DNA of 64,000 bases from Ancylobacter radicis. GTDB taxonomy: Bacteria; Pseudomonadota; Alphaproteobacteria; Rhizobiales; Xanthobacteraceae. Shown here in pieces: positions 1 to 54,161 of this stretch. Position 1 is the stretch's first letter; each line of letters begins with the position of its first letter. The stretch covers positions 124,001-188,000 of the forward strand of contig NZ_JAHCQH010000015.1 of assembly GCF_018449475.1 (NCBI RefSeq). The letters are read 5' to 3'. Below the pieces are notes generated by a model that was not told where the DNA came from, searched no databases, and saw only the letters and a list, made by a program, of their open reading frames with translations. A program made the translations under genes and the position numbers.

Positions 1-987
1 GCTGGTATAGGTCGGCGCGTTCGACACCGCCTTGCGCTGCGTGCCGGTGGCGACATCGAAACGCTGCACGCCGTGATATTTATCGGCCGAGGCCTCGGCG
101 GGGGCGTAGCCCTTGCCCTTCTGGGTGACGACATGGACCAGGATCGGCCCGGTCTCGCTGTCGCGCGCATTGCGCAGCACCGGCAGCAGATGGTCGAGAT
201 TGTGCCCGTCGATCGGCCCGACATAGTAGAAGCCGAGTTCCTCGAACAGCGTGCCGCCGGTCCAGAAGCCGCGCGCGAACTCCTCCGCCCGCGCCGCCTG
301 ACGGCCGAAGAACTTCGGCAGATTGCCGGCGAGCTGCTTGGCGGTCTCGCGCAGCGACCGGTAGGTGCGCCCGGAAATCAGCCGGGCGAGATAGGCCGAC
401 ATGGCGCCGACCGGGGGCGCGATCGACATGTCATTGTCGTTGAGGATGACGATGAGGCGCGAATCCATGGCGCCGGCATTGTTCATCGCCTCATAGGCCA
501 TGCCCGCCGACATGGCGCCGTCGCCGATGACCGCGACCACATTGCGCGGGCTGGTGCCGGCGGCCTTGGCCGCCTCCAGATCGCGCGCCACAGCCATGCC
601 GAGGCCGGCGGAGATCGAGGTGGAGGAATGGCCGGCGCCGAACGGGTCGTAGATGCTCTCGGTGCGATTGGTGAAGCCGGACAGGCCGCCGCCCTGGCGC
701 AGCGTGCGGATGCGCTCGCGCCGGCCGGTCAGGATCTTGTGCGGGTAGCACTGGTGGCCGACATCCCAGATCAGCCGGTCATTGGGCGTGTCGAACACGT
801 GATGCAGGGCGACCGTGAGTTCCACCACGCCCAGGCCGGCGCCCAGATGCCCGCCGGTGACGGATACCGCGTCGATCATCTCCGCGCGCAGCTCCGCCGC
901 CAGTTGCGGGAGCTTGTCGTCGGACAGGCGGCGCAGATCCGCCGGCACCTGCACAGTATCGAGAAGCGGCGTGGAAGGACGGGTCAA
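1..987 (-). CDS. dxs: 1-deoxy-D-xylulose-5-phosphate synthase, 5' part (3' end outside window)
   Basis: Thiamine-diphosphate enzyme that condenses pyruvate and glyceraldehyde 3-phosphate into DXP, the entry step of the MEP isoprenoid pathway, in the cytosol. The 329 codons present carry the classic N-terminal features: [38 protein letters not shown], the thiamine-binding [18 protein letters not shown] segment with NDNDMSI after it, and [10 protein letters not shown]. The start is taken as TTG at 987 because GGAG lies six bases upstream of it; an in-frame GTG 30 bases further upstream is possible. Divergent from the hydrolase gene at 1200. Truncated by the window edge, not broken. Identity is very secure. 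Confidence 0.95.
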
Positions 988-47059: not shown

Positions 47060-47347
47060 TTATTCTTCTTCGCCGAACCGGTCGGCGATGAGGCTCGTCA
47101 GCGCCTCCAGCACGGCGACCGCCTCGCGGCCGGAGGCCACAACCTGGATCGTTGTGCCGGGGGCCGCCGCCAGCATCATCAGGCCCATGATGGAGGTGCC
47201 GCCAACGGTCTCGCCGCAGCGCGTCACCCGGACATCGGCGTCGAAACGCTCCACGGTCTGCACGAATTTGGCGGAGGCGCGCGCATGCAGGCCGCGACGG
47301 TTGACGATGGGCAGTTCGCGCGTGAGGGCGACCGAGGTGTCCATCAT
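47060..47347 (-). CDS. HPr-family phosphocarrier protein
   Basis: Protein of 95 residues. RRGLHARASAKFVQTVERF has the phosphorylated His (position 21 here) and GGTSIMGLMMLAAAPGTTIQVVASGREA holds the Ser phosphorylated by HprK in the family. In rhizobia this HPr belongs to the regulatory PTS with EI-Ntr rather than a sugar-uptake system. Overlaps the EIIA stop (ATGA), so translationally coupled. Confidence 0.93.
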   Translation of the reverse strand: MMDTSVALTRELPIVNRRGLHARASAKFVQTVERFDADVRVTRCGETVGGTSIMGLMMLAAAPGTTIQVVASGREAVAVLEALTSLIADRFGEEE

Positions 47348-47745
47348 TTCCCGGCAAGCACCCGGCTGGCGATGTTGATGTATTTGCGCCCGGCGTCCTG
47401 CGCCTGGACCACGGCCTCGGCCATCGGCAGTTCGCCGCGCACCGTGGCGAGCTTGACCAGCATGGGCAGGTTGATCCCGGCCACCACTTCGATCTCGGGC
47501 GACGTCATGACCGAGATGGCGAGATTGGACGGCGTGCCGCCGAACATGTCGGTGAGAATCACCACGCCGCCGCCACTGTTCACCACAGCGACCGCATCGA
47601 CGATATCCTTGCGACGCTGCTCGATGTCATCGTCGGGACCAATGGTAATGGCTTCAAGCTGGGACTGGGGTCCCATGACATGTTCCAGAGCCGAACGGAA
47701 CTCGCTGGCCAGGCGTCCGTGCGTTACGAGTACGAGACCTATCAT
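47344..47745 (-). CDS. PTS EIIA-Man-type protein
   Basis: Protein of 133 residues: MIGLVLVTHGRLASEFRSALEHVMG with the phosphorylated His at position 9, AVAVVNSGGGVVILTDMFGGTPSNLAIS, GINLPMLVKLATVRGELPM. Matches the mannose-type EIIA found in the rhizobial regulatory PTS cluster without a permease. ATG at 47745. Lies downstream of hprK and upstream of HPr. Confidence 0.92.
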   Translation of the reverse strand: MIGLVLVTHGRLASEFRSALEHVMGPQSQLEAITIGPDDDIEQRRKDIVDAVAVVNSGGGVVILTDMFGGTPSNLAISVMTSPEIEVVAGINLPMLVKLATVRGELPMAEAVVQAQDAGRKYINIASRVLAGK

Positions 47746-47800
47746 TCTGCTCCGCCGCGCCCGCATTACGGCACGAGTGCATGTCTGCGCAGAGGGCACC

Positions 47801-47817
47801 CGAATGATGAATTCGGA
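47801..47817. promoter_or_regulatory. CCGAAT-N5-ATTCGG dyad before the EIIA gene
   Basis: Perfect 6-bp arms, 56 bp before the EIIA ATG in the 165-bp gap after hprK. Possible operator of the EIIA-HPr pair; no regulator is implied by context. Confidence 0.3.
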
Positions 47818-47910
47818 TGCACCTCTTTCGTGGGGCGCCCATCATCGTTGCAGCGCACACGAATGGCAAGTGCGTAAGGGCATAACTCGAAGCATATTCG
47901 GGTGATGGGC

Positions 47911-48366
47911 CTAGTCGACACCGGGCTGCGTCAACAGCCGGGCCAGCACCTGCTGCACCGCATCGCCCGGCGCCAGCACCGGCAGCCGGGCCAGTTCCAC
48001 ACCGGAAATCATGCAGCGGCAGGCCTCCGGCTCGGGAAGCCGGGCGGCGTCGGCGGCGGCGAGGTCGACCACGAGCCGCACCGGAACCGCCTCGGCATGG
48101 GGCAACCGGCGCACGCCCGCGCCGCGGACCTCGATCAGCCCCGCGAGCGTGTGCGGCGCGGTCGCGAACAGGTCGCCGCCGTTCGGTGTCAGGCTCACCC
48201 GGTCATCGGCGACCAGAAGCGTCGGCGGCACGATTCCCGAACCGCCGAGGAGGATCAGGGCAAAGGCCAGATGCGACTTCCCCGCTCCCGACGGCCCCCG
48301 GATGAGAACGCCGCGCCCGCCGACGCTGACGCAGGAGGCGTGGATGGTCGCCGCCGCCCCCATCAC
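47911..48366 (-). CDS. hprK: short HprK-type HPr kinase/phosphorylase
   Basis: Protein of 151 residues, only the C-terminal catalytic half of Firmicute HprK, as usual in alphaproteobacteria. IHASCVSVGGRGVLIRGPSGAGKSHLAFALI has the P-loop, LVADDRVSLTPNGGDLFA the catalytic Asp, and IEVRGAGVRRLP the family signature. It sets the Ser-phosphorylation of HPr. Overlaps the chvG stop (ATGA). Confidence 0.93.
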   Translation of the reverse strand: MMGAAATIHASCVSVGGRGVLIRGPSGAGKSHLAFALILLGGSGIVPPTLLVADDRVSLTPNGGDLFATAPHTLAGLIEVRGAGVRRLPHAEAVPVRLVVDLAAADAARLPEPEACRCMISGVELARLPVLAPGDAVQQVLARLLTQPGVD

Positions 48367-50237
48367 ACGGCCGGCAGGCGCACGATGAAGCGGGCGCCGG
48401 CCGACTTGGGCACCGGCGCCGCCTCATCGGGGACTTGGGCGACCGGCTTGCGGGCGCGCGATTTGGGCTTGGCCGCCGCTTTGGCCGCCAGCCGGTTCTC
48501 GGCCCAGATGCGACCGCCATGGGCCTCGACGATCTGCTGGGAGATGGACAGGCCGAGACCGGAATTCTGGCCAAAGCCCTGCTCCTCCGGCCGGTCGGTA
48601 TAGAAACGCTCGAAGATGCGGGAGAGCGCATGCGGGGGAATACCCGGCCCATCATCGTCGACAATGACCTCCACCGCATCCTTCAGCCGGCGGCAGGTGA
48701 CCCGCACCTCCCCGCCCTGCGGCGAGAAGGAGCGGGCATTGTCGATCAGATTGTTGATGACCTGGCCGAGGCGGGAATCATGACCCGGCACGACAAAGCC
48801 GCCGCTTGCTCCGGCCGCGTGCTCGAATCCCAGCTTCACGCTCACCCCATCGCTGCGCACGACATCATTGTGCACGCCGGTCACGGTGTTGAGCAGCCGC
48901 GTCAGGTCCACCGGCTCGGCCTCCTGACGCTGGAGTTCGGCGTCGAGGCGCGAGGCATCGGAAATGTCGGTGATGAGGCGATCGAGCCGTCTCACATCAT
49001 GCTGGATGACCTCCAGCAGCCGGGCGCGCGAACTGTCGGACTTGGCCAGCGGCAGGGTCTCGACCGCCGAGCGCAGCGAGGTGAGCGGGTTCTTCAGCTC
49101 ATGCGACACATCGGCGGCGAAGCTCTCGATCGCCTCGATGCGGGAATACAGCGCATCCGTCATGTCGCGCAGCGCGCCGGACAAATGCCCGATCTCGTCC
49201 GAGCGGCGGGTGAAATCGGGAATCTCGACACGCGAGCGGGTGCGCCGCCGCACTCTTTCGGCGGCATCGGCGAGCTTGCGCACGGGGCCGGCGATGGTGC
49301 TGGCGAGCAGCAGCGAGAGCACCACCATCACCGCCATGGCGACGAGGAAGACGCGCACGATGACGAGGCGCTCGGCCGCCACCGCCTCGTCGATCTCGCC
49401 GCCCTGGGTGGAGAGCAGCAGCACCCCGAGAATGGCGCGGAAGCGTTGCACCGGCACCGCGACGGAGACGATCACCTGACCGCGGTCATTGACCTGAACG
49501 GCGCTCGACTTCTGCCCCTGAAGCGCCGCCACAACAGCAGGGTAGCCCTTGCCATTGTTCGGCCCAAGCTCCTTGTAGAGCGGCAGGTCGCCCCGCTCGA
49601 ACCACATCTTCAGGCTGTTCCAGCCGCGCTCCATCCAGTTCGGCTTCGGCGCGTTGGGGGCCGACATCTCGAAGCGCAGGATCTCGCCCCGCGAATAGAG
49701 CGAGCGCGAATCAACGAGCAGCGAGCCGTCGCGATCATAAATCCGTGCGCGCGTGCCGGTCGGCTCGACGAGGCGCTTCAGCACCGGAGCCACGCGCTCG
49801 GGATTGATCGGAAATTCCAGCGGCGCGAAGCCCTCTTCACCCGGGCCGTAGCTCTCGCCGGCCTGAAGTTCCAGCAGGCGCTCGGGGTCGATGCTGATGG
49901 CGTTGGTCTCGACCTGCGCCGAGGCGGCGATCGCGCTGGCGATAATTTCGCCTTGCACGAGAAGGCTTTGGACGCGCGCGTCGATGAGGCCGGCGCGGAA
50001 CTCGGACAGATACAGGATACCCGACACCAGCACGCCCATGCCGGCGAGGTTGAGCAGGACGATGCGGCGCGTGAGGCTCGAAAAGCTCTTGAAGGCGACA
50101 AAATTTCGCAGCCGCCCGAACGCACCGAGCAGCCGGGTCAGGCGGCCCAGCTTGGGCGCTCCCTCCTCCGGTGCATCGGCCGCGTCGCGCGGATCCTCGT
50201 CCTCGGTCACCGGCCGGGCGGATGCTGGGTCGAGCAA
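48363..50237 (-). CDS. chvG: ChvG-type sensor histidine kinase
   Basis: Membrane sensor of 624 residues that responds to acid and envelope state in rhizobia. TM1 (RRIVLLNLAGMGVLVSGILYLSEF), a periplasmic domain of about 200 residues with RIYDRDGSLLVDSRSLYSRGE, TM2 (RVFLVAMAVMVVLSLLLASTIAG), HAMP, HisKA SFAADVSHELKNPLTSL with the phospho-His at about 379, then N and G boxes (NLIDNARSFS, DDGPGIPPHALSRIFERFY, SGLGLSISQQIVEAHGG). TTG at 50237 has AGGAG nine bases upstream, inside the chvI end; a TTG at 50267 is the other candidate. Confidence 0.93.
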   Translation of the reverse strand: MLDPASARPVTEDEDPRDAADAPEEGAPKLGRLTRLLGAFGRLRNFVAFKSFSSLTRRIVLLNLAGMGVLVSGILYLSEFRAGLIDARVQSLLVQGEIIASAIAASAQVETNAISIDPERLLELQAGESYGPGEEGFAPLEFPINPERVAPVLKRLVEPTGTRARIYDRDGSLLVDSRSLYSRGEILRFEMSAPNAPKPNWMERGWNSLKMWFERGDLPLYKELGPNNGKGYPAVVAALQGQKSSAVQVNDRGQVIVSVAVPVQRFRAILGVLLLSTQGGEIDEAVAAERLVIVRVFLVAMAVMVVLSLLLASTIAGPVRKLADAAERVRRRTRSRVEIPDFTRRSDEIGHLSGALRDMTDALYSRIEAIESFAADVSHELKNPLTSLRSAVETLPLAKSDSSRARLLEVIQHDVRRLDRLITDISDASRLDAELQRQEAEPVDLTRLLNTVTGVHNDVVRSDGVSVKLGFEHAAGASGGFVVPGHDSRLGQVINNLIDNARSFSPQGGEVRVTCRRLKDAVEVIVDDDGPGIPPHALSRIFERFYTDRPEEQGFGQNSGLGLSISQQIVEAHGGRIWAENRLAAKAAAKPKSRARKPVAQVPDEAAPVPKSAGARFIVRLPAV

Positions 50238-50244
50238 GAAGCCG

Positions 50245-50943
50245 CTACTCCTTGAAGCGGTAGCCAACGCCGTACAGCGTCTCGATCATCTCGAAATTGT
50301 CGTCCGTCACCTTGAACTTCTTGCGAAGCCGCTTGATGTGGCTGTCAATGGTGCGGTCGTCGACATAGACCTGGTCGTCATAGGCCGCATCCATCAGCGC
50401 GTTGCGGCTCTTGACCACGCCCGGACGGGTCGCAAGTGCTTGCAAGATCAGAAATTCGGTGACGGTGAGGGTGACGTTCTCGCCCTTCCAGGTGCAGGTA
50501 TGGCGCTCGGGATCCATGCGCAGCAGGCCGCGTTCCAGCACTTTGGCGCTGTCGGTCTCGCGCGGCATCGTGCCGTCCTTGGGCGCAACACGGCGCAGCA
50601 CCGCCTTCACCCGCTCGACCAGCAGGCGCTGCGAGAAGGGCTTCTTGATGAAGTCGTCGGCGCCCATTTTCAGGCCGAACAACTCGTCGATTTCATCATC
50701 CTTGGAGGTGAGGAAGATCACCGGCATGTCGCTTTTCTGGCGCAGGCGACGCAGCAGTTCCATGCCGTCCATGCGCGGCATCTTGATGTCGAAGATGGCG
50801 AGGTCCGGCGGGCTGGTCTTGAAACCGTCAAGCGCCGTCGCCCCATCCGTGTAGGTCTGGATGCGATAACCCTCGGATTCCAGGGCGATCGACACGGATG
50901 TGAGAATGTTGCGATCGTCGTCGACGAGAGCGATGGTCGGCAT
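50245..50943 (-). CDS. chvI: ChvI-type OmpR-family response regulator
   Basis: Protein of 232 residues. Receiver domain with [26 protein letters not shown] (acidic pocket), [18 protein letters not shown] (phospho-Asp) and [15 protein letters not shown] (conserved Lys); DNA-binding winged helix ends [42 protein letters not shown] before the ATG at 50943. Controls envelope and succinoglycan-type genes in relatives. First gene of the chvI-chvG-hprK run. Confidence 0.95.
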
Positions 50944-51003
50944 CTGGACACTTTCCTGTTCGGCGGCGGTAAGGGCAGCCTGCGGGTCAACCGTGCCGCC
51001 GTG

Positions 51004-51032
51004 GCCATAATGTGACAGGCAAACTGATTCAA
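51004..51032 (-). promoter_or_regulatory. sigma-70-type promoter of chvI
   Basis: On the minus strand TTGAAT (51032-51027), 17-bp spacer, TATGGC (51009-51004), ending 61 bp before the chvI ATG. The -10 resembles the atpI promoter. Confidence 0.4.
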
Positions 51033-51088
51033 CAGAAATAGCGCGTTTCAAGGCACATAGCCAATCGCCCCTGCGAGGAAGGATCCTC

Positions 51089-51871
51089 ATGCCCGCCCTG
51101 CAACCTGCCAGCAAGCCCCCCATGCCCCCCAGCACGACGTTCGACGCCCCCGCGGCGACACGCCGGCTGATGCGCGAGGCCCGCTTCGGCGCGCTCGCCA
51201 CGCTCGACGCCGATGGCGGTCCCTATGCCTCGCTGGTACAGGTGGCGACATTGCCGGACGGCACGCCCATTCTCCTGCTTTCCGATCTGGCGCGGCATAC
51301 GCGCAATGTCGCGCGAGACCGCCGGGTCTCCCTGCTGGTCGATGAGCGGCGCACCGGCGACGAGCTTCAGGGCGCGCGCGCCGGTTTGATCGGGTGGACA
51401 GTCAGGTTAAGTCAGGCCGATGAGGTTGAGATCGCGCGCCGCCGTTTCCTGGCCCGCCACCCCGACGCCGCCGGCTTCGCCGGGTTCGCCGATTTCGCCT
51501 TCTACCGGGTGGAGGTGTCGAGCGCCCACCTCGTCGCCGGCTTCGGCCGCATCACCGATGTGACGCGGGACGACCTCATCCTCGACATCTCGGACGCCGG
51601 CGAGGTGCTGGCGGCGGAGGAGAGCACGGTCGCCCACATGAATGAGGACCACCGCGACGCGATCGAGCTTTACGCGATGCAGCTCATCGGCACGGGGCCG
51701 GGCGACTGGCGGCTGATCGGCATCGATCCGGCCGGCTGCGACCTGATGTCCGGCACCGAGGTCCGCCGGCTGGATTTTCCGCGCCGGGCGACCAATGCGC
51801 GGATCATGCGGGAAATTCTGGTGGAACTGGCCGCAAAAGCCCGTGGAGCCCCGGTGGATTCGCCGCAATAG
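51089..51871 (+). CDS. HugZ-type pyridoxamine-phosphate-oxidase-fold protein with DUF2470
   Basis: Protein of 260 residues. The split-barrel domain [60 protein letters not shown] is followed by the C-terminal DUF2470 ([17 protein letters not shown]). This is the layout of haem-utilisation protein HugZ and relatives, which bind haem or flavin; the substrate here is not shown. AGGAAGG before the ATG. Sits between chvI and the pckA-like gene. Confidence 0.85.
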
Positions 51872-52012
51872 GTAGGGGGATCGGGTCGGCCCTTAACCTA
51901 TGACCATCGGTTCGGCCCGGTTTCGTCACACAATCGACCCGGAAGATCGGCCAAAACCGCGCGTGGGAGCACCCGGTGCCCCCTGTCTGTCCCGCGTCAG
52001 GAGGAGCCGACC

Positions 52013-53611
52013 TTGCAACAGTCTGGCACGCGTAACGAACAGCATGGCCTTGAGGCCATTGGCCTCGACGGCAGCGGAAAGCTGTTCTGGAACCTTGGCG
52101 ACGCCGCCCTGTGCGAGCGATCCATCGCCCGCGGCGAGGCGCGCCTGTCCGCCGCCGGGGCGCTGGCCGCCGAAACCGGCGCGCATCGCAGCCCGAACCC
52201 GGCCGACCGCTTCATCCTGCGCGAGGAGCGCACGCAGGACAGCGTCGATTGGGACAAGGCGAACGCCCTCACCCGCGACCATTTCGACGCTCTCAAGACC
52301 GATTTCCTCGCTTATGCCGGCGCGCGCACCCTGTTCGCGCAGGATCTCGACGCCGGCGACATCCCGGTGCGGGTGCTGACCGAGCATGCCTGGCACGCGC
52401 TGGTGATGCGCAATCTGCTCGGCCGGCCGGATGCGGCAGCGATTGCAACCTTTGCCCCCCGCCTCACCGTGATCTGCGTGCCGAGCTTCAAGGCCGAGCC
52501 GGAGAAACACGGCGTGCGCTCCGCGACCGTCATCGCCTGCGACCTCGCCGAAGGGCTGGTGTTGATCGGCGGCACGGCGCTGGCGGGCGAGATTCGCGGC
52601 GCGGTGCACACCTATCTCGGCCACGCCCTGGCGGCGCGCGGGACGCTGGCGCTGAACGCCGCCGCCACGACCGGGGTCGACGGCAATACCGCCCTGTTCC
52701 TCGGCCTGCCCGGCACCGGCAAGACCGCCCTCGCCGACACGCCGGAGCGGGCGCTGGTCGCCGACGGTGTTCTTGGCTGGAGCGCGGACGGCATCCGCGC
52801 GCTGGAAGCGGGTTGCTACGCCCGCGCCGAACATGTGACCGCCGCCGGCACGCCGGTGCTGTTCGCCGCGCTCTCGCGCTTCGGTACGGTGCTGGAGAAT
52901 GTCCCCCTCGATGCCGAGACCCGCCAGCCTCTGATCGAGGGCGAGACCCCGGCCGAGAGCGCCCGCGCCGCCTTCGCGCTCCCCGCACCGGCCACGGCGC
53001 GGCCGGAGGGAAGCGGTGTCCATCCGAAGGCGCTGTTCCTGCTGAGCTGCGACACGCTCGGTGTGCTGCCGCCGATCGCCCGGCTGACCCCGGCGCAGGC
53101 GATCTATCATTTCCTCTCCGGCTACAGCGCCACCCTGCCCGGCACCGAGGCGGGAATCGAGGAGGCGCAGATCGCCTTCGCCCCCGGCTTCGGCGCCCCC
53201 TTCCTGTCCGGCGCCCCGGCGGCCGCCAGCGGCATGCTGCGCGACCTCATCGCCCGCCAGGAGGTCACCTGCTGGCTGGTCAATAGCGGCTGGATCGGCG
53301 GCAAGGCCGGCACGGGCCGGCGGGTGCCGGTGGAGACGACGCGCGCGCTGGTCGGCGCCGCGCTCGACGGCACGCTGGACGCGGGCGAATGGCGCACCGA
53401 CCCGCATTTCGGCGTCGAGGTACCCAAGGCGGTGGAGGGCGTCGATGCCCGCCTGCTCGACCCGGCGCGGAGCTGGGCGAGCCGGATGGACTACGCCAAG
53501 ACCGCCCGGCAGCTCGTCTCCCATTTCAGCCGCCATTTCGCGCGGTTCGAGAGCCTGGTCGATGACGAGGTGCGCGGCGCCCAGCCCAGTCTGGCGATCG
53601 CCGCCGAGTAG
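52013..53611 (+). CDS. PEP-carboxykinase (ATP) homologue lacking the metal-binding active site
   Basis: Protein of 532 residues from a TTG start with AGGAGGAG upstream, full length for ATP-PEPCK, at the usual pckA place beside chvI. Fold motifs are present: LIGGTALAGE, P-loop GLPGTGKT (231-238), HPKALFLLSCDTLGVLPPIARLTPAQAIYHFLSGY, WLVNSGWIGG. But against E. coli PckA the Mn2+ ligands K213, H232 and D269 are G196, N215 and G252; K212 is R195, Y207 is L190, and the R65 region is rearranged. P-loop Lys and R333 equivalent remain. No frameshift. So likely a pseudoenzyme or new activity, not normal PEPCK. Confidence 0.85.
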   Translation: MQQSGTRNEQHGLEAIGLDGSGKLFWNLGDAALCERSIARGEARLSAAGALAAETGAHRSPNPADRFILREERTQDSVDWDKANALTRDHFDALKTDFLAYAGARTLFAQDLDAGDIPVRVLTEHAWHALVMRNLLGRPDAAAIATFAPRLTVICVPSFKAEPEKHGVRSATVIACDLAEGLVLIGGTALAGEIRGAVHTYLGHALAARGTLALNAAATTGVDGNTALFLGLPGTGKTALADTPERALVADGVLGWSADGIRALEAGCYARAEHVTAAGTPVLFAALSRFGTVLENVPLDAETRQPLIEGETPAESARAAFALPAPATARPEGSGVHPKALFLLSCDTLGVLPPIARLTPAQAIYHFLSGYSATLPGTEAGIEEAQIAFAPGFGAPFLSGAPAAASGMLRDLIARQEVTCWLVNSGWIGGKAGTGRRVPVETTRALVGAALDGTLDAGEWRTDPHFGVEVPKAVEGVDARLLDPARSWASRMDYAKTARQLVSHFSRHFARFESLVDDEVRGAQPSLAIAAE

Positions 53612-53648
53612 TGGCAGCATGGGGCCTCCAAGCGACGGAGGCCCTGTC

Positions 53649-54161
53649 ATGCGCCGTGCCGGAACCGCTCTCGTCCTGACCGCCCTTTTCGGCATCCTGC
53701 CGGCCACAGCCGAGGCGGGGACGGCGACGGTGACCTTCGTCGCGCCCGAAACCTACAGGGACGGCAATCTCGGCTGGGGGCCGGTGGACCAGCGCCTCAC
53801 GCTGGAGGGCCTCACCCGCATCCTCCAGCGCCTCGCCGCCGCCCGCCTGCCGGCCGGCGACACGCTGGAGGTGTCGGTCCGCGACATCGACCTCGCGGGC
53901 GCCATCAACCCGCTCGCCTCCCGCACCGGCACGCTGCGGGTGATGCGGCAGGACACCTGGCCCTCGATCACGCTCACCTACACGCTGCGCCGGAACGGGC
54001 GGGTGATGGCGCGCGGTGAAGAGACCGTGCGGGCGATGAATTATCTGATGGACCCGGTGGCGGTCCGCTCGGTCGAGCCGCTGCGTTTCGAGACGGCGCT
54101 GCTGAGCAAATGGCTGACGACCACCCTGCGCCCCTATCTGGCGACACAGGCGCAGGGCTGA
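53649..54161 (+). CDS. exported DUF3016-like protein
   Basis: Protein of 170 residues. Signal peptide MRRAGTALVLTALFGILPATAEA, then VTFVAPETYRDGNLGWGPVDQRLTLEGLTRILQRLAAARLPAGDTLEVSVRDIDLAGAI, fitting DUF3016. Probably periplasmic; function unknown. ACGGAGG before the ATG. Downstream of the pckA-like gene by 37 bp, so possibly cotranscribed. Confidence 0.75.
   Translation: MRRAGTALVLTALFGILPATAEAGTATVTFVAPETYRDGNLGWGPVDQRLTLEGLTRILQRLAAARLPAGDTLEVSVRDIDLAGAINPLASRTGTLRVMRQDTWPSITLTYTLRRNGRVMARGEETVRAMNYLMDPVAVRSVEPLRFETALLSKWLTTTLRPYLATQAQG

What the first reader, a model, noticed from the sequence alone, without database searches (positions are those of the whole stretch)
52013..53611. Full-length PEP-carboxykinase homologue with all Mn2+ ligands replaced, at the pckA locus
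Aligning by eye to E. coli PckA, the metal ligands K213, H232 and D269 fall on G196, N215 and G252; K212 becomes R195, Y207 becomes L190, C233 becomes A216, and the substrate Arg65 region is rearranged. Yet the reading frame is open, the P-loop GLPGTGKT, the R333 equivalent and the C-terminal core are kept, and the gene has a strong ribosome site. That pattern suggests a selected pseudoenzyme or a new kinase-like role rather than decay. Its place by chvGI and the HprK/EIIA/HPr set hints at a regulatory role in carbon flow.
Basis: partly seen in the sequence, partly recalled or inferred. Interest (0 to 1): 0.85.

Follow-up and report, generated by a model that had tools for sequence, protein, structure and literature searches.

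The report
Dead PEP carboxykinase kept by selection
In one genus of bacteria the gene for a textbook metabolic enzyme, PEP carboxykinase, appears to have lost its catalytic site several separate times, yet the gene stays unbroken and under selection, which suggests that the protein has a second job worth finding.

Summary
The window's PckA homologue (52013-53611, 532 aa) has G196, N215 and G252 where E. coli PckA has K213, H232 and D269. It is the only PEPCK gene found in a 99.97% complete genome. The genus is Ancylobacter (inferred: G011's chromosome length equals that published for Starkeya novella). All 30 genomes searched carry this gene at the same locus with an open frame: 7 have an intact core, 23 have lost catalytic residues (18 all three metal ligands). 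Outside the genus, 178 of 180 loci had the full 12-residue core; the other two are split frames. Marker-gene and PckA trees both reject a single origin of the defective state; 3-4 origins fit. Codon models give omega 0.05-0.24 in ten close pairs of defective copies: purifying selection. Loss is selective: recalled oxaloacetate/Mn residues are 12% retained, recalled MgATP residues 97%. PPDK (30/30) and malic enzyme (28/30) offer a bypass. Best reading: a recurrently evolved, selected pseudoenzyme that probably still binds MgATP and acts through its fold, N-terminus and C-terminal part. Its role is unknown; ancestral gene order gives no special support to a PTS/ChvGI role. Binding and activity are untested; no structure model was obtained.

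The parts
52013..53611 (+). pckA-locus gene, 532-aa PEPCK homologue with defective oxaloacetate/Mn site (TTG start)
   Evidence: open and syntenic in 30 of 30 genus genomes
51999..52006 (+). Shine-Dalgarno-like AGGAGGAG before the TTG start
   Evidence: read directly; similar sequence in most genus members
51921..51944 (+). upstream block TTTCGTCACACAATCGACCCGGAA, similar block before intact and defective copies in most of the genus; function unknown (promoter/operator suspected)
   Evidence: alignment of 30 leaders; one match with up to 2 mismatches in the own genome, this one
52598..52600 (+). codon of G196 (E. coli K213, Mn ligand)
   Evidence: K213 lost in 20 of 23 defective copies
52655..52657 (+). 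codon of N215 (E. coli H232, Mn ligand)
   Evidence: H232 lost in 18 of 23
52766..52768 (+). codon of G252 (E. coli D269, Mn ligand)
   Evidence: D269 lost in 18 of 23, Gly in 17
52703..52726 (+). P-loop GLPGTGKT (residues 231-238), kept
   Evidence: Lys kept in 21 of 23, T or S at 255 in 23 of 23
52763..52765 (+). codon of D251 (E. coli D268, Walker-B-like Asp), kept
   Evidence: kept in 30 of 30
52964..52966 (+). codon of R318 (E. coli R333), kept
   Evidence: kept in 30 of 30
53321..53323 (+). codon of R437 (E. coli R449), kept
   Evidence: kept in 30 of 30
53120..53191 (+). region aligned to the active-site lid (about E. coli 386-410, role recalled); full length in the window protein, shortened in several relatives
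   Evidence: omega of window 370-410 is 0.026 in intact and 0.225 in defective copies
52013..52135 (+). N-terminal residues 1-41, the most constrained window in defective copies
   Evidence: omega 0.037 over 10 pairs
53243..53611 (+). C-terminal part (residues 411-532), pooled constraint as in intact enzymes, weaker in clade 4
   Evidence: omega 0.073-0.080 pooled, 0.112-0.192 in clade 4, 0.070-0.085 in intact
47060..51201 (-). HPr, EIIA(Man), HprK, ChvG and ChvI ORFs: ancestral neighbourhood, context only
   Evidence: gene order described in PMC2937029

Best explanation
The gene is the vertically inherited pckA of Ancylobacter. PEP formation through PPDK with malic enzyme makes the carboxykinase reaction dispensable (inferred). 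In at least three, probably four, lineages of the genus the oxaloacetate and Mn2+ site was dismantled; Tyr207 is gone in every defective copy and the metal ligands in most. The folded protein was kept under purifying selection for another function (shown at sequence level). The MgATP site residues, the N-terminal 40 residues and the C-terminal part are what selection keeps most. The likely mechanism (inferred) is a MgATP-binding pseudoenzyme whose ligand-dependent shape or surface acts on a partner: a second role that intact PckA of these bacteria may already have had and that does not need catalysis. The partner is unknown. The stated confidence is for a selected pseudoenzyme of several origins; for the MgATP-dependent mechanism itself I would say about 0.4.
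For: Only one PF01293 gene in the genome; 0 of 30 genus genomes have PF00821; PPDK over cut-off in 30 of 30, malic enzyme domain in 28 of 30, PEPC in 30 of 30. Same locus in 30 of 30, all frames open. Core of 12 residues intact in 7 of 30 genus genomes and in 178 of 180 loci outside the genus, the other two being split frames. NCBIfam NF006822 (cut-off 806 bits): 5 of 5 intact genus copies tested score 920-967; the window (618) and 5 of 5 other defective copies tested (398-692) fail. Single origin of the 23 defective copies rejected on marker genes (p-AU 3.8e-7) and on PckA with 163 trait columns removed (2.9e-8; 7.5e-4 for 21 of them). omega 0.047-0.235 in 10 defective pairs, 2dlnL against omega 1 of 63-269. 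Retention 12% for the OAA/Mn set and 97% for the MgATP set against a mean of 61% for 165 invariant columns. Recurrent identical changes: M231L in 23 of 23, K288R and S258A in 20 of 23 each, 0 of the 179-180 outside loci with a letter there. Windowed omega rises most at the lid and stays low at both ends.
Against: Nothing was measured: no ATP binding, activity or expression data. Two of 23 defective copies (G007, G020) lack the Walker A Lys, and E297 (recalled ATP contact) is lost in 14 of 23, so ATP binding may not be universal. Selection is weaker in the most derived clade (omega about 0.2, lid window 0.42) and PckA there evolves 9.5 times as fast as the unlinked markers, so some relaxation is real. 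A simpler method gave omega 0.228 for one intact pair (G010-G011), as high as the defective pairs; the likelihood fit gave 0.078 for it. The residue sets for the permutation test rest on recalled roles and were fixed after I had seen the residue table. No partner was identified. The predicted structure did not return.
Confidence: 0.72

Rival explanations
1. Slow decay: a redundant enzyme under relaxed selection that has not yet collected stops or frameshifts.
For: PckA is accelerated 3.8-9.5 fold over unlinked markers on defective branches, against 1.33 on intact ones; PPDK and malic enzyme give redundancy. In Brucella a similar redundancy went with truncated pckA (PMC5896264, passages).
Against: omega 0.05-0.24 after the loss, in all four defective clades, no stop or frameshift in 30 genomes, no gene loss in 30 while 17 of 121 non-genus relatives had no match, leader conserved in most, non-random retention.
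Confidence: 0.1
2. Neofunctionalised kinase or ATPase: the MgATP half-site is used on a new substrate, in the manner of the structurally related HPr kinase.
For: Walker A, T/S255, D268, R333 and R449 kept while the oxaloacetate/Mn site is lost; some identical substitutions recur; hprK is a neighbour. The HprK-PEPCK fold relation is recalled.
Against: Walker A Lys lost in 2 of 23; new pocket residues differ among lineages (H232 becomes N, C, E, S, A, R or D), unlike a shared new chemistry; no HprK family match (one search lists only PF01293 at E up to 0.001).
Confidence: 0.12
3. Still a PEPCK, with an unusual or metal-independent active site.
For: Five of 23 defective copies keep H232 and D269 (three of them also K213), so early stages may retain some activity.
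Against: The window protein lacks all three metal ligands, K212, Y207 and probably R65; no substitute Lys nearby; Y207 lost in 23 of 23.
Confidence: 0.04
4. One defective allele arose once and spread by recombination, so the repeated losses are not independent.
For: A PckA tree with all columns groups 21 of 23 at support 74; identical changes such as M231L are shared by 23 of 23; the two marker sets disagree about G010.
Against: With trait columns removed PckA follows the outline of the marker tree and monophyly is rejected; sister lineages differ in which ligands remain (G009 against G015; G001/G028 against G000/G023/G026).
Confidence: 0.1

Closest known systems
ATP-dependent PEP carboxykinase PckA of Rhizobiales (PF01293; NCBIfam NF006822)
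   Same: Full-length homology, ancestral locus, P-loop, D268, R333 and R449 equivalents, N- and C-terminal conservation
   Different: No K213, H232, D269, K212, Y207; under the cut-offs of all six NCBIfam PEPCK models listed (618 against 806 bits for NF006822), while 5 of 5 intact genus copies tested pass NF006822; accelerated evolution
pckA of Brucella abortus, B. melitensis, B. ovis (PMC5896264, abstract and passages)
   Same: PckA dispensable where PPDK and malic enzyme supply PEP; same gene neighbourhood
   Different: There the gene is truncated by a frameshift; here the frame stays open in 30 of 30 genomes and is under selection
HPr kinase/phosphorylase HprK
   Same: P-loop phosphotransferase of related fold (recalled); neighbour gene at this locus
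   Different: No sequence-family match to HprK; no Walker A Lys in 2 of 23 defective copies
Pseudoenzymes in general (for example pseudokinases that keep ATP binding; recalled)
   Same: Catalytic residues lost, fold and nucleotide-site residues kept, selected
   Different: Here the single-copy orthologue of a central metabolic enzyme, converted repeatedly within one genus with no active paralogue found in the same genomes

Membership tests
ATP-PEPCK (PF01293) | full-length sequence homology | tested here: met
   452 bits, profile positions 3-464 of 465
ATP-PEPCK (PF01293) | Mn ligands Lys213, His232, Asp269 and substrate residues Tyr207, Lys212 | tested here: not met
   G196, N215, G252, L190, R195
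ATP-PEPCK (PF01293) | substrate Arg65 | tested here: inconclusive
   P61 in the column, R59 two residues earlier
ATP-PEPCK (PF01293) | P-loop, Asp268, Arg333, Arg449 | tested here: met
   residues 231-238, D251, R318, R437
ATP-PEPCK (PF01293) | curated equivalog score (NF006822, TIGR00224) | tested here: not met
   618 against 806 and 386 against 590 bits; control: 5 of 5 intact genus copies tested pass both
ATP-PEPCK (PF01293) | PEP carboxykinase activity | not testable with these tools
   needs purified protein
pseudoenzyme of the PEPCK family | catalytic residues lost while the protein is under purifying selection | tested here: met
pseudoenzyme of the PEPCK family | absence of catalysis; ligand binding | not testable with these tools
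   needs assay
HprK-like kinase | sequence-family match to HprK | tested here: not met
   only PF01293 at E up to 0.001
GTP-PEPCK (PF00821) | sequence-family match | tested here: not met
   no match in the protein; 0 of 30 genomes
decaying pseudogene | stops or frameshifts, omega near 1 | tested here: not met
   0 of 30 disrupted; omega 0.047-0.235 in 10 defective pairs

The most novel reading that the evidence does not exclude
PckA of these bacteria has, beside catalysis, a conserved ATP-dependent regulatory or structural role, encoded by its MgATP site, N-terminus and C-terminal part. Ancylobacter has repeatedly stripped away the catalytic half and kept the regulator, giving a natural set of parallel experiments that includes intermediate stages.
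Probability: 0.4. Interest if true: 0.85.

Novelty: new variant of a known kind. Interest (0 to 1): 0.74.

Why it matters
Pseudoenzymes are usually met as paralogues beside an active copy (general knowledge). Here the only copy of a central metabolic enzyme appears to have become one several times in one genus, with early stages (metal ligands kept, substrate residues gone) and late stages (lid shortened) alive side by side. That makes two questions testable: in what order an active site is dismantled, and whether ordinary PckA has a hidden non-catalytic role. It also warns that annotating pckA as gluconeogenic is probably wrong for most species of this genus, and with it flux models built on that annotation.

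Tried and rejected
Gene-neighbour coevolution: HPr and HprK have a slightly higher defective/intact length ratio (3.24, 3.25) than the other neighbours (1.73-2.36); rate correlations with PckA run from rho 0.01 to 0.40 (highest ChvG, p 0.003 uncorrected), those among the neighbours from -0.09 to 0.55, so no partner is claimed. Extra small malic enzyme in 10 of 23 defective and 0 of 7 intact genomes: Fisher p 0.064 and not phylogenetically independent. Upstream block as a regulon: only its own site in the genome. No published consensus letters were obtained to test it as a ChvI site (passages of PMC9491525 and PMC3687685). PEPCK metal ligands in print: one search listed nothing useful and the passages of PMC6241538 did not help, so residue roles are recalled. 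Print searches for a PEPCK pseudoenzyme or an Ancylobacter PckA: (1 paper; 0; 1; 4; 0), seen as listings only; by title and abstract start none is about this. One search read minus-strand loci on the wrong strand; its rows for them are void and one search replaces them.

Full report
What is there. The frame 52013-53611 (+) encodes 532 aa and matches PEPCK_ATP, PF01293, end to end (452 bits). It falls under the cut-offs of all six NCBIfam PEPCK models that it matches (best 618 against 806 bits). As a control I scanned 5 of the 7 intact and 5 of the other 22 defective genus copies: the intact ones reach 920-967 bits for NF006822 and pass, the defective ones 398-692 and fail. No substitute Lys lies between residues 165 and 237. 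His at the column of H199 occurs in this protein alone of 30; at that of H204 it occurs in 7 of 23 defective and 0 of 7 intact copies, with other letters in the rest. The R65 column holds Pro, but an Arg sits two residues before it, so that one point is ambiguous.

Genome and genus. The own genome (4.22 Mb, 99.97% complete) has no other PF01293 gene. All 30 genomes of the genus that were searched, the own one included, have one pckA-like locus (in 7 genomes the match is split into two pieces of one gene). One of them, G011, has a chromosome of 4,765,023 bases, the length published for Starkeya novella (PMC3570799, passages), now Ancylobacter novellus; the window is therefore from Ancylobacter (inference). 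The gene lies in the same place in 30 of 30, facing away from the HPr-EIIA-HprK-ChvG-ChvI cluster. Of 11 named Rhizobiales loci, 8 show the whole cluster beside pckA, 1 lies on a stretch that ends inside it, and 2 Labrys loci showed only PckA. The order is described for alphaproteobacteria in PMC2937029 (passages). BvrR, the ChvI orthologue, binds upstream of pckA in Brucella (PMC9491525, passages).

How common is the defect. I compared 12 core positions (R65 Y207 K212 K213 H232 K254 T255 D268 D269 E270 R333 R449). Outside the genus I read 180 loci: 100 of the 104 relatives with a match (four fragmentary ones were not fetched), plus the 80 named loci, which were chosen for similarity to the genus (one of these, L132, appears to be the same record as a fetched relative). 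The full set is present in 178. The other two are genes split into two frames whose pieces show no core substitution; in one of them (L301) four positions, Y207 to H232, are not covered. Within the genus the set is present in 7 of 30 and altered in 23 of 30. Of those 23, 18 have lost all three metal ligands, 2 have lost K213 only, and 3 keep all three but have lost substrate residues. Y207 is gone in 23 of 23, K212 in 22, K213 in 20, R65 in 19 or 20 by alignment, H232 in 18, D269 in 18 (Gly in 17). D268, R333 and R449 are kept in 23 of 23, the Walker A Lys in 21.

Not random. Of 165 columns that are at least 97% invariant among 127 intact sequences (120 of the outside loci and the 7 intact genus copies), the defective copies keep on average 61%. 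The seven oxaloacetate/Mn positions are kept 12% (P printed as 0.0000 in 20,000 random sets), the eight MgATP positions 97% (P 0.0003). I had seen the residue table before fixing these sets and allowed S for T255, so the P values are descriptive. By region, invariants near R65, at 211-240 and in 391-420 are mostly lost; those at both ends are mostly kept. In clade 4 the 25-residue lid region is down to 4-10 residues in 7 of its 10 members. Some replacements recur: M231L 23 of 23, S214A 22, S234A 21, K288R 20, S258A 20; outside the genus these letters occur in 0 of 179, 3 of 179, 1 of 179, 0 of 180 and 0 of 180 loci with a letter there. S234A also occurs in one intact genus member (G006). Most of these are common exchanges, so recurrence need not mean a shared new function; D269G is less easily explained so.

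Several origins. A tree of PPDK, PEPC and six neighbour proteins (3729 columns, quick search) needs 4 changes of state, at least 3 forced by well-supported branches, and rejects one clade of the 23 (p-AU 3.8e-7). PckA itself, with 163 trait columns dropped and 381 kept, follows the same outline, needs 3 changes and rejects one clade of 23 (2.9e-8) and of 21 (7.5e-4). A PckA tree with all columns had drawn 21 together at support 74, which I take for long-branch attraction. If regain is excluded, Y207 was lost 4 times, D269 4, H232 4, K213 5. These counts use a fixed topology in which the places of G006 and G010 are weakly supported, and the two marker sets disagree about G010.

Selection. In 10 pairs of defective copies (some share a species) maximum-likelihood omega is 0.047-0.235 and omega = 1 is rejected with 2dlnL 63-269; two intact pairs give 0.030 and 0.048; PPDK 0.008-0.041 and PEPC 0.014-0.070 over the same 12 pairs. 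A first run with a simpler method gave 0.047-0.220 for 8 defective pairs, but also 0.228 for one intact pair, G010-G011, for which the likelihood fit gives 0.078. On the fixed topology PckA evolves 1.33 times the unlinked markers on intact branches, 2.4 times on the backbone, and 3.8, 7.3, 4.4 and 9.5 times in the four defective clades. In windows, omega in defective copies is 0.037 for residues 1-41, 0.073-0.080 for 411-533 (0.112-0.192 in clade 4) and highest, 0.225 (0.42 in clade 4), for 370-410, which in intact copies is the lowest at 0.026. The deeper pairs there are saturated at silent sites, so absolute values are rough. No frame of 30 is broken. The leader with its Shine-Dalgarno sequence and a block about 70-90 bases upstream of the start are conserved in most intact and defective members, and the block is unique in the genome.

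Why catalysis could be lost. PPDK is over cut-off in 30 of 30, the malic enzyme domain is found in 28 of 30 (missing in G006, intact, and G022, defective), PEPC in 30 of 30, GTP-PEPCK in 0 of 30. In Brucella, where PPDK supplies PEP, pckA is truncated in several species (PMC5896264, passages). Of 121 non-genus relatives 17 had no pckA match at all, 15 of them in genomes at least 90% complete and at most 5% contaminated. Ancylobacter is different: the gene is kept open and selected.

How it probably works. Shown at sequence level: single copy, repeated selective loss of the oxaloacetate/Mn half, selection on the rest. Inferred: no PEPCK activity in the window protein; MgATP binding; a role through shape or surface. 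Neighbour genes give no specific hint: rate correlation with PckA is rho 0.01-0.40 (highest ChvG), within the range among the neighbours themselves. Two species without the Walker A Lys (G007, G020) argue against ATP turnover as the common function.

Limits. No structure model came back (last asked). Nothing was measured in cells. Literature searches covered only the held open-access library and were read as listings; they showed no report of this case.

Noticed in passing
G001, G002, G012, G013, G014, G016, G018, G020, G027, G029: A second, shorter malic enzyme (open frame 547-768 aa, E 4e-68 or better) occurs in 10 of 23 genomes with defective PckA and in 0 of 7 with intact PckA; Fisher p 0.064, clades not independent.
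   Followed up: partly
G006 and G022: No malic enzyme domain was found although PPDK is present; G006 has an intact PckA core, G022 a defective one.
   Followed up: no
window 51921-51944: A 24-base block upstream of pckA is conserved in most of the genus and found once in the own genome.
   Followed up: partly
window 47060-48366: HPr and HprK have somewhat higher defective/intact branch-length ratios (3.24, 3.25) than the other neighbours (1.73-2.36); HPr was cut at the locus edge in G003 and G008.
   Followed up: partly
G112, G125, G143; L301, L302: In other genera of the order some pckA matches hold an in-frame stop or are split into two frames, the usual picture of decay or assembly error.
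   Followed up: partly
window 53445-54161: A downstream ORF overlapping the pckA end (orf238) has a counterpart in some genus members and none or a short match in others.
   Followed up: no
window 51926-53707 (-): A 593-codon open frame runs antisense to pckA; the omega results fit coding on the + strand, so this is probably a GC-rich artefact.
   Followed up: no
PMC3570799, substrate table: A. novellus, whose PckA core is intact, is listed as not using malate, fumarate or citrate and weakly using succinate.
   Followed up: no
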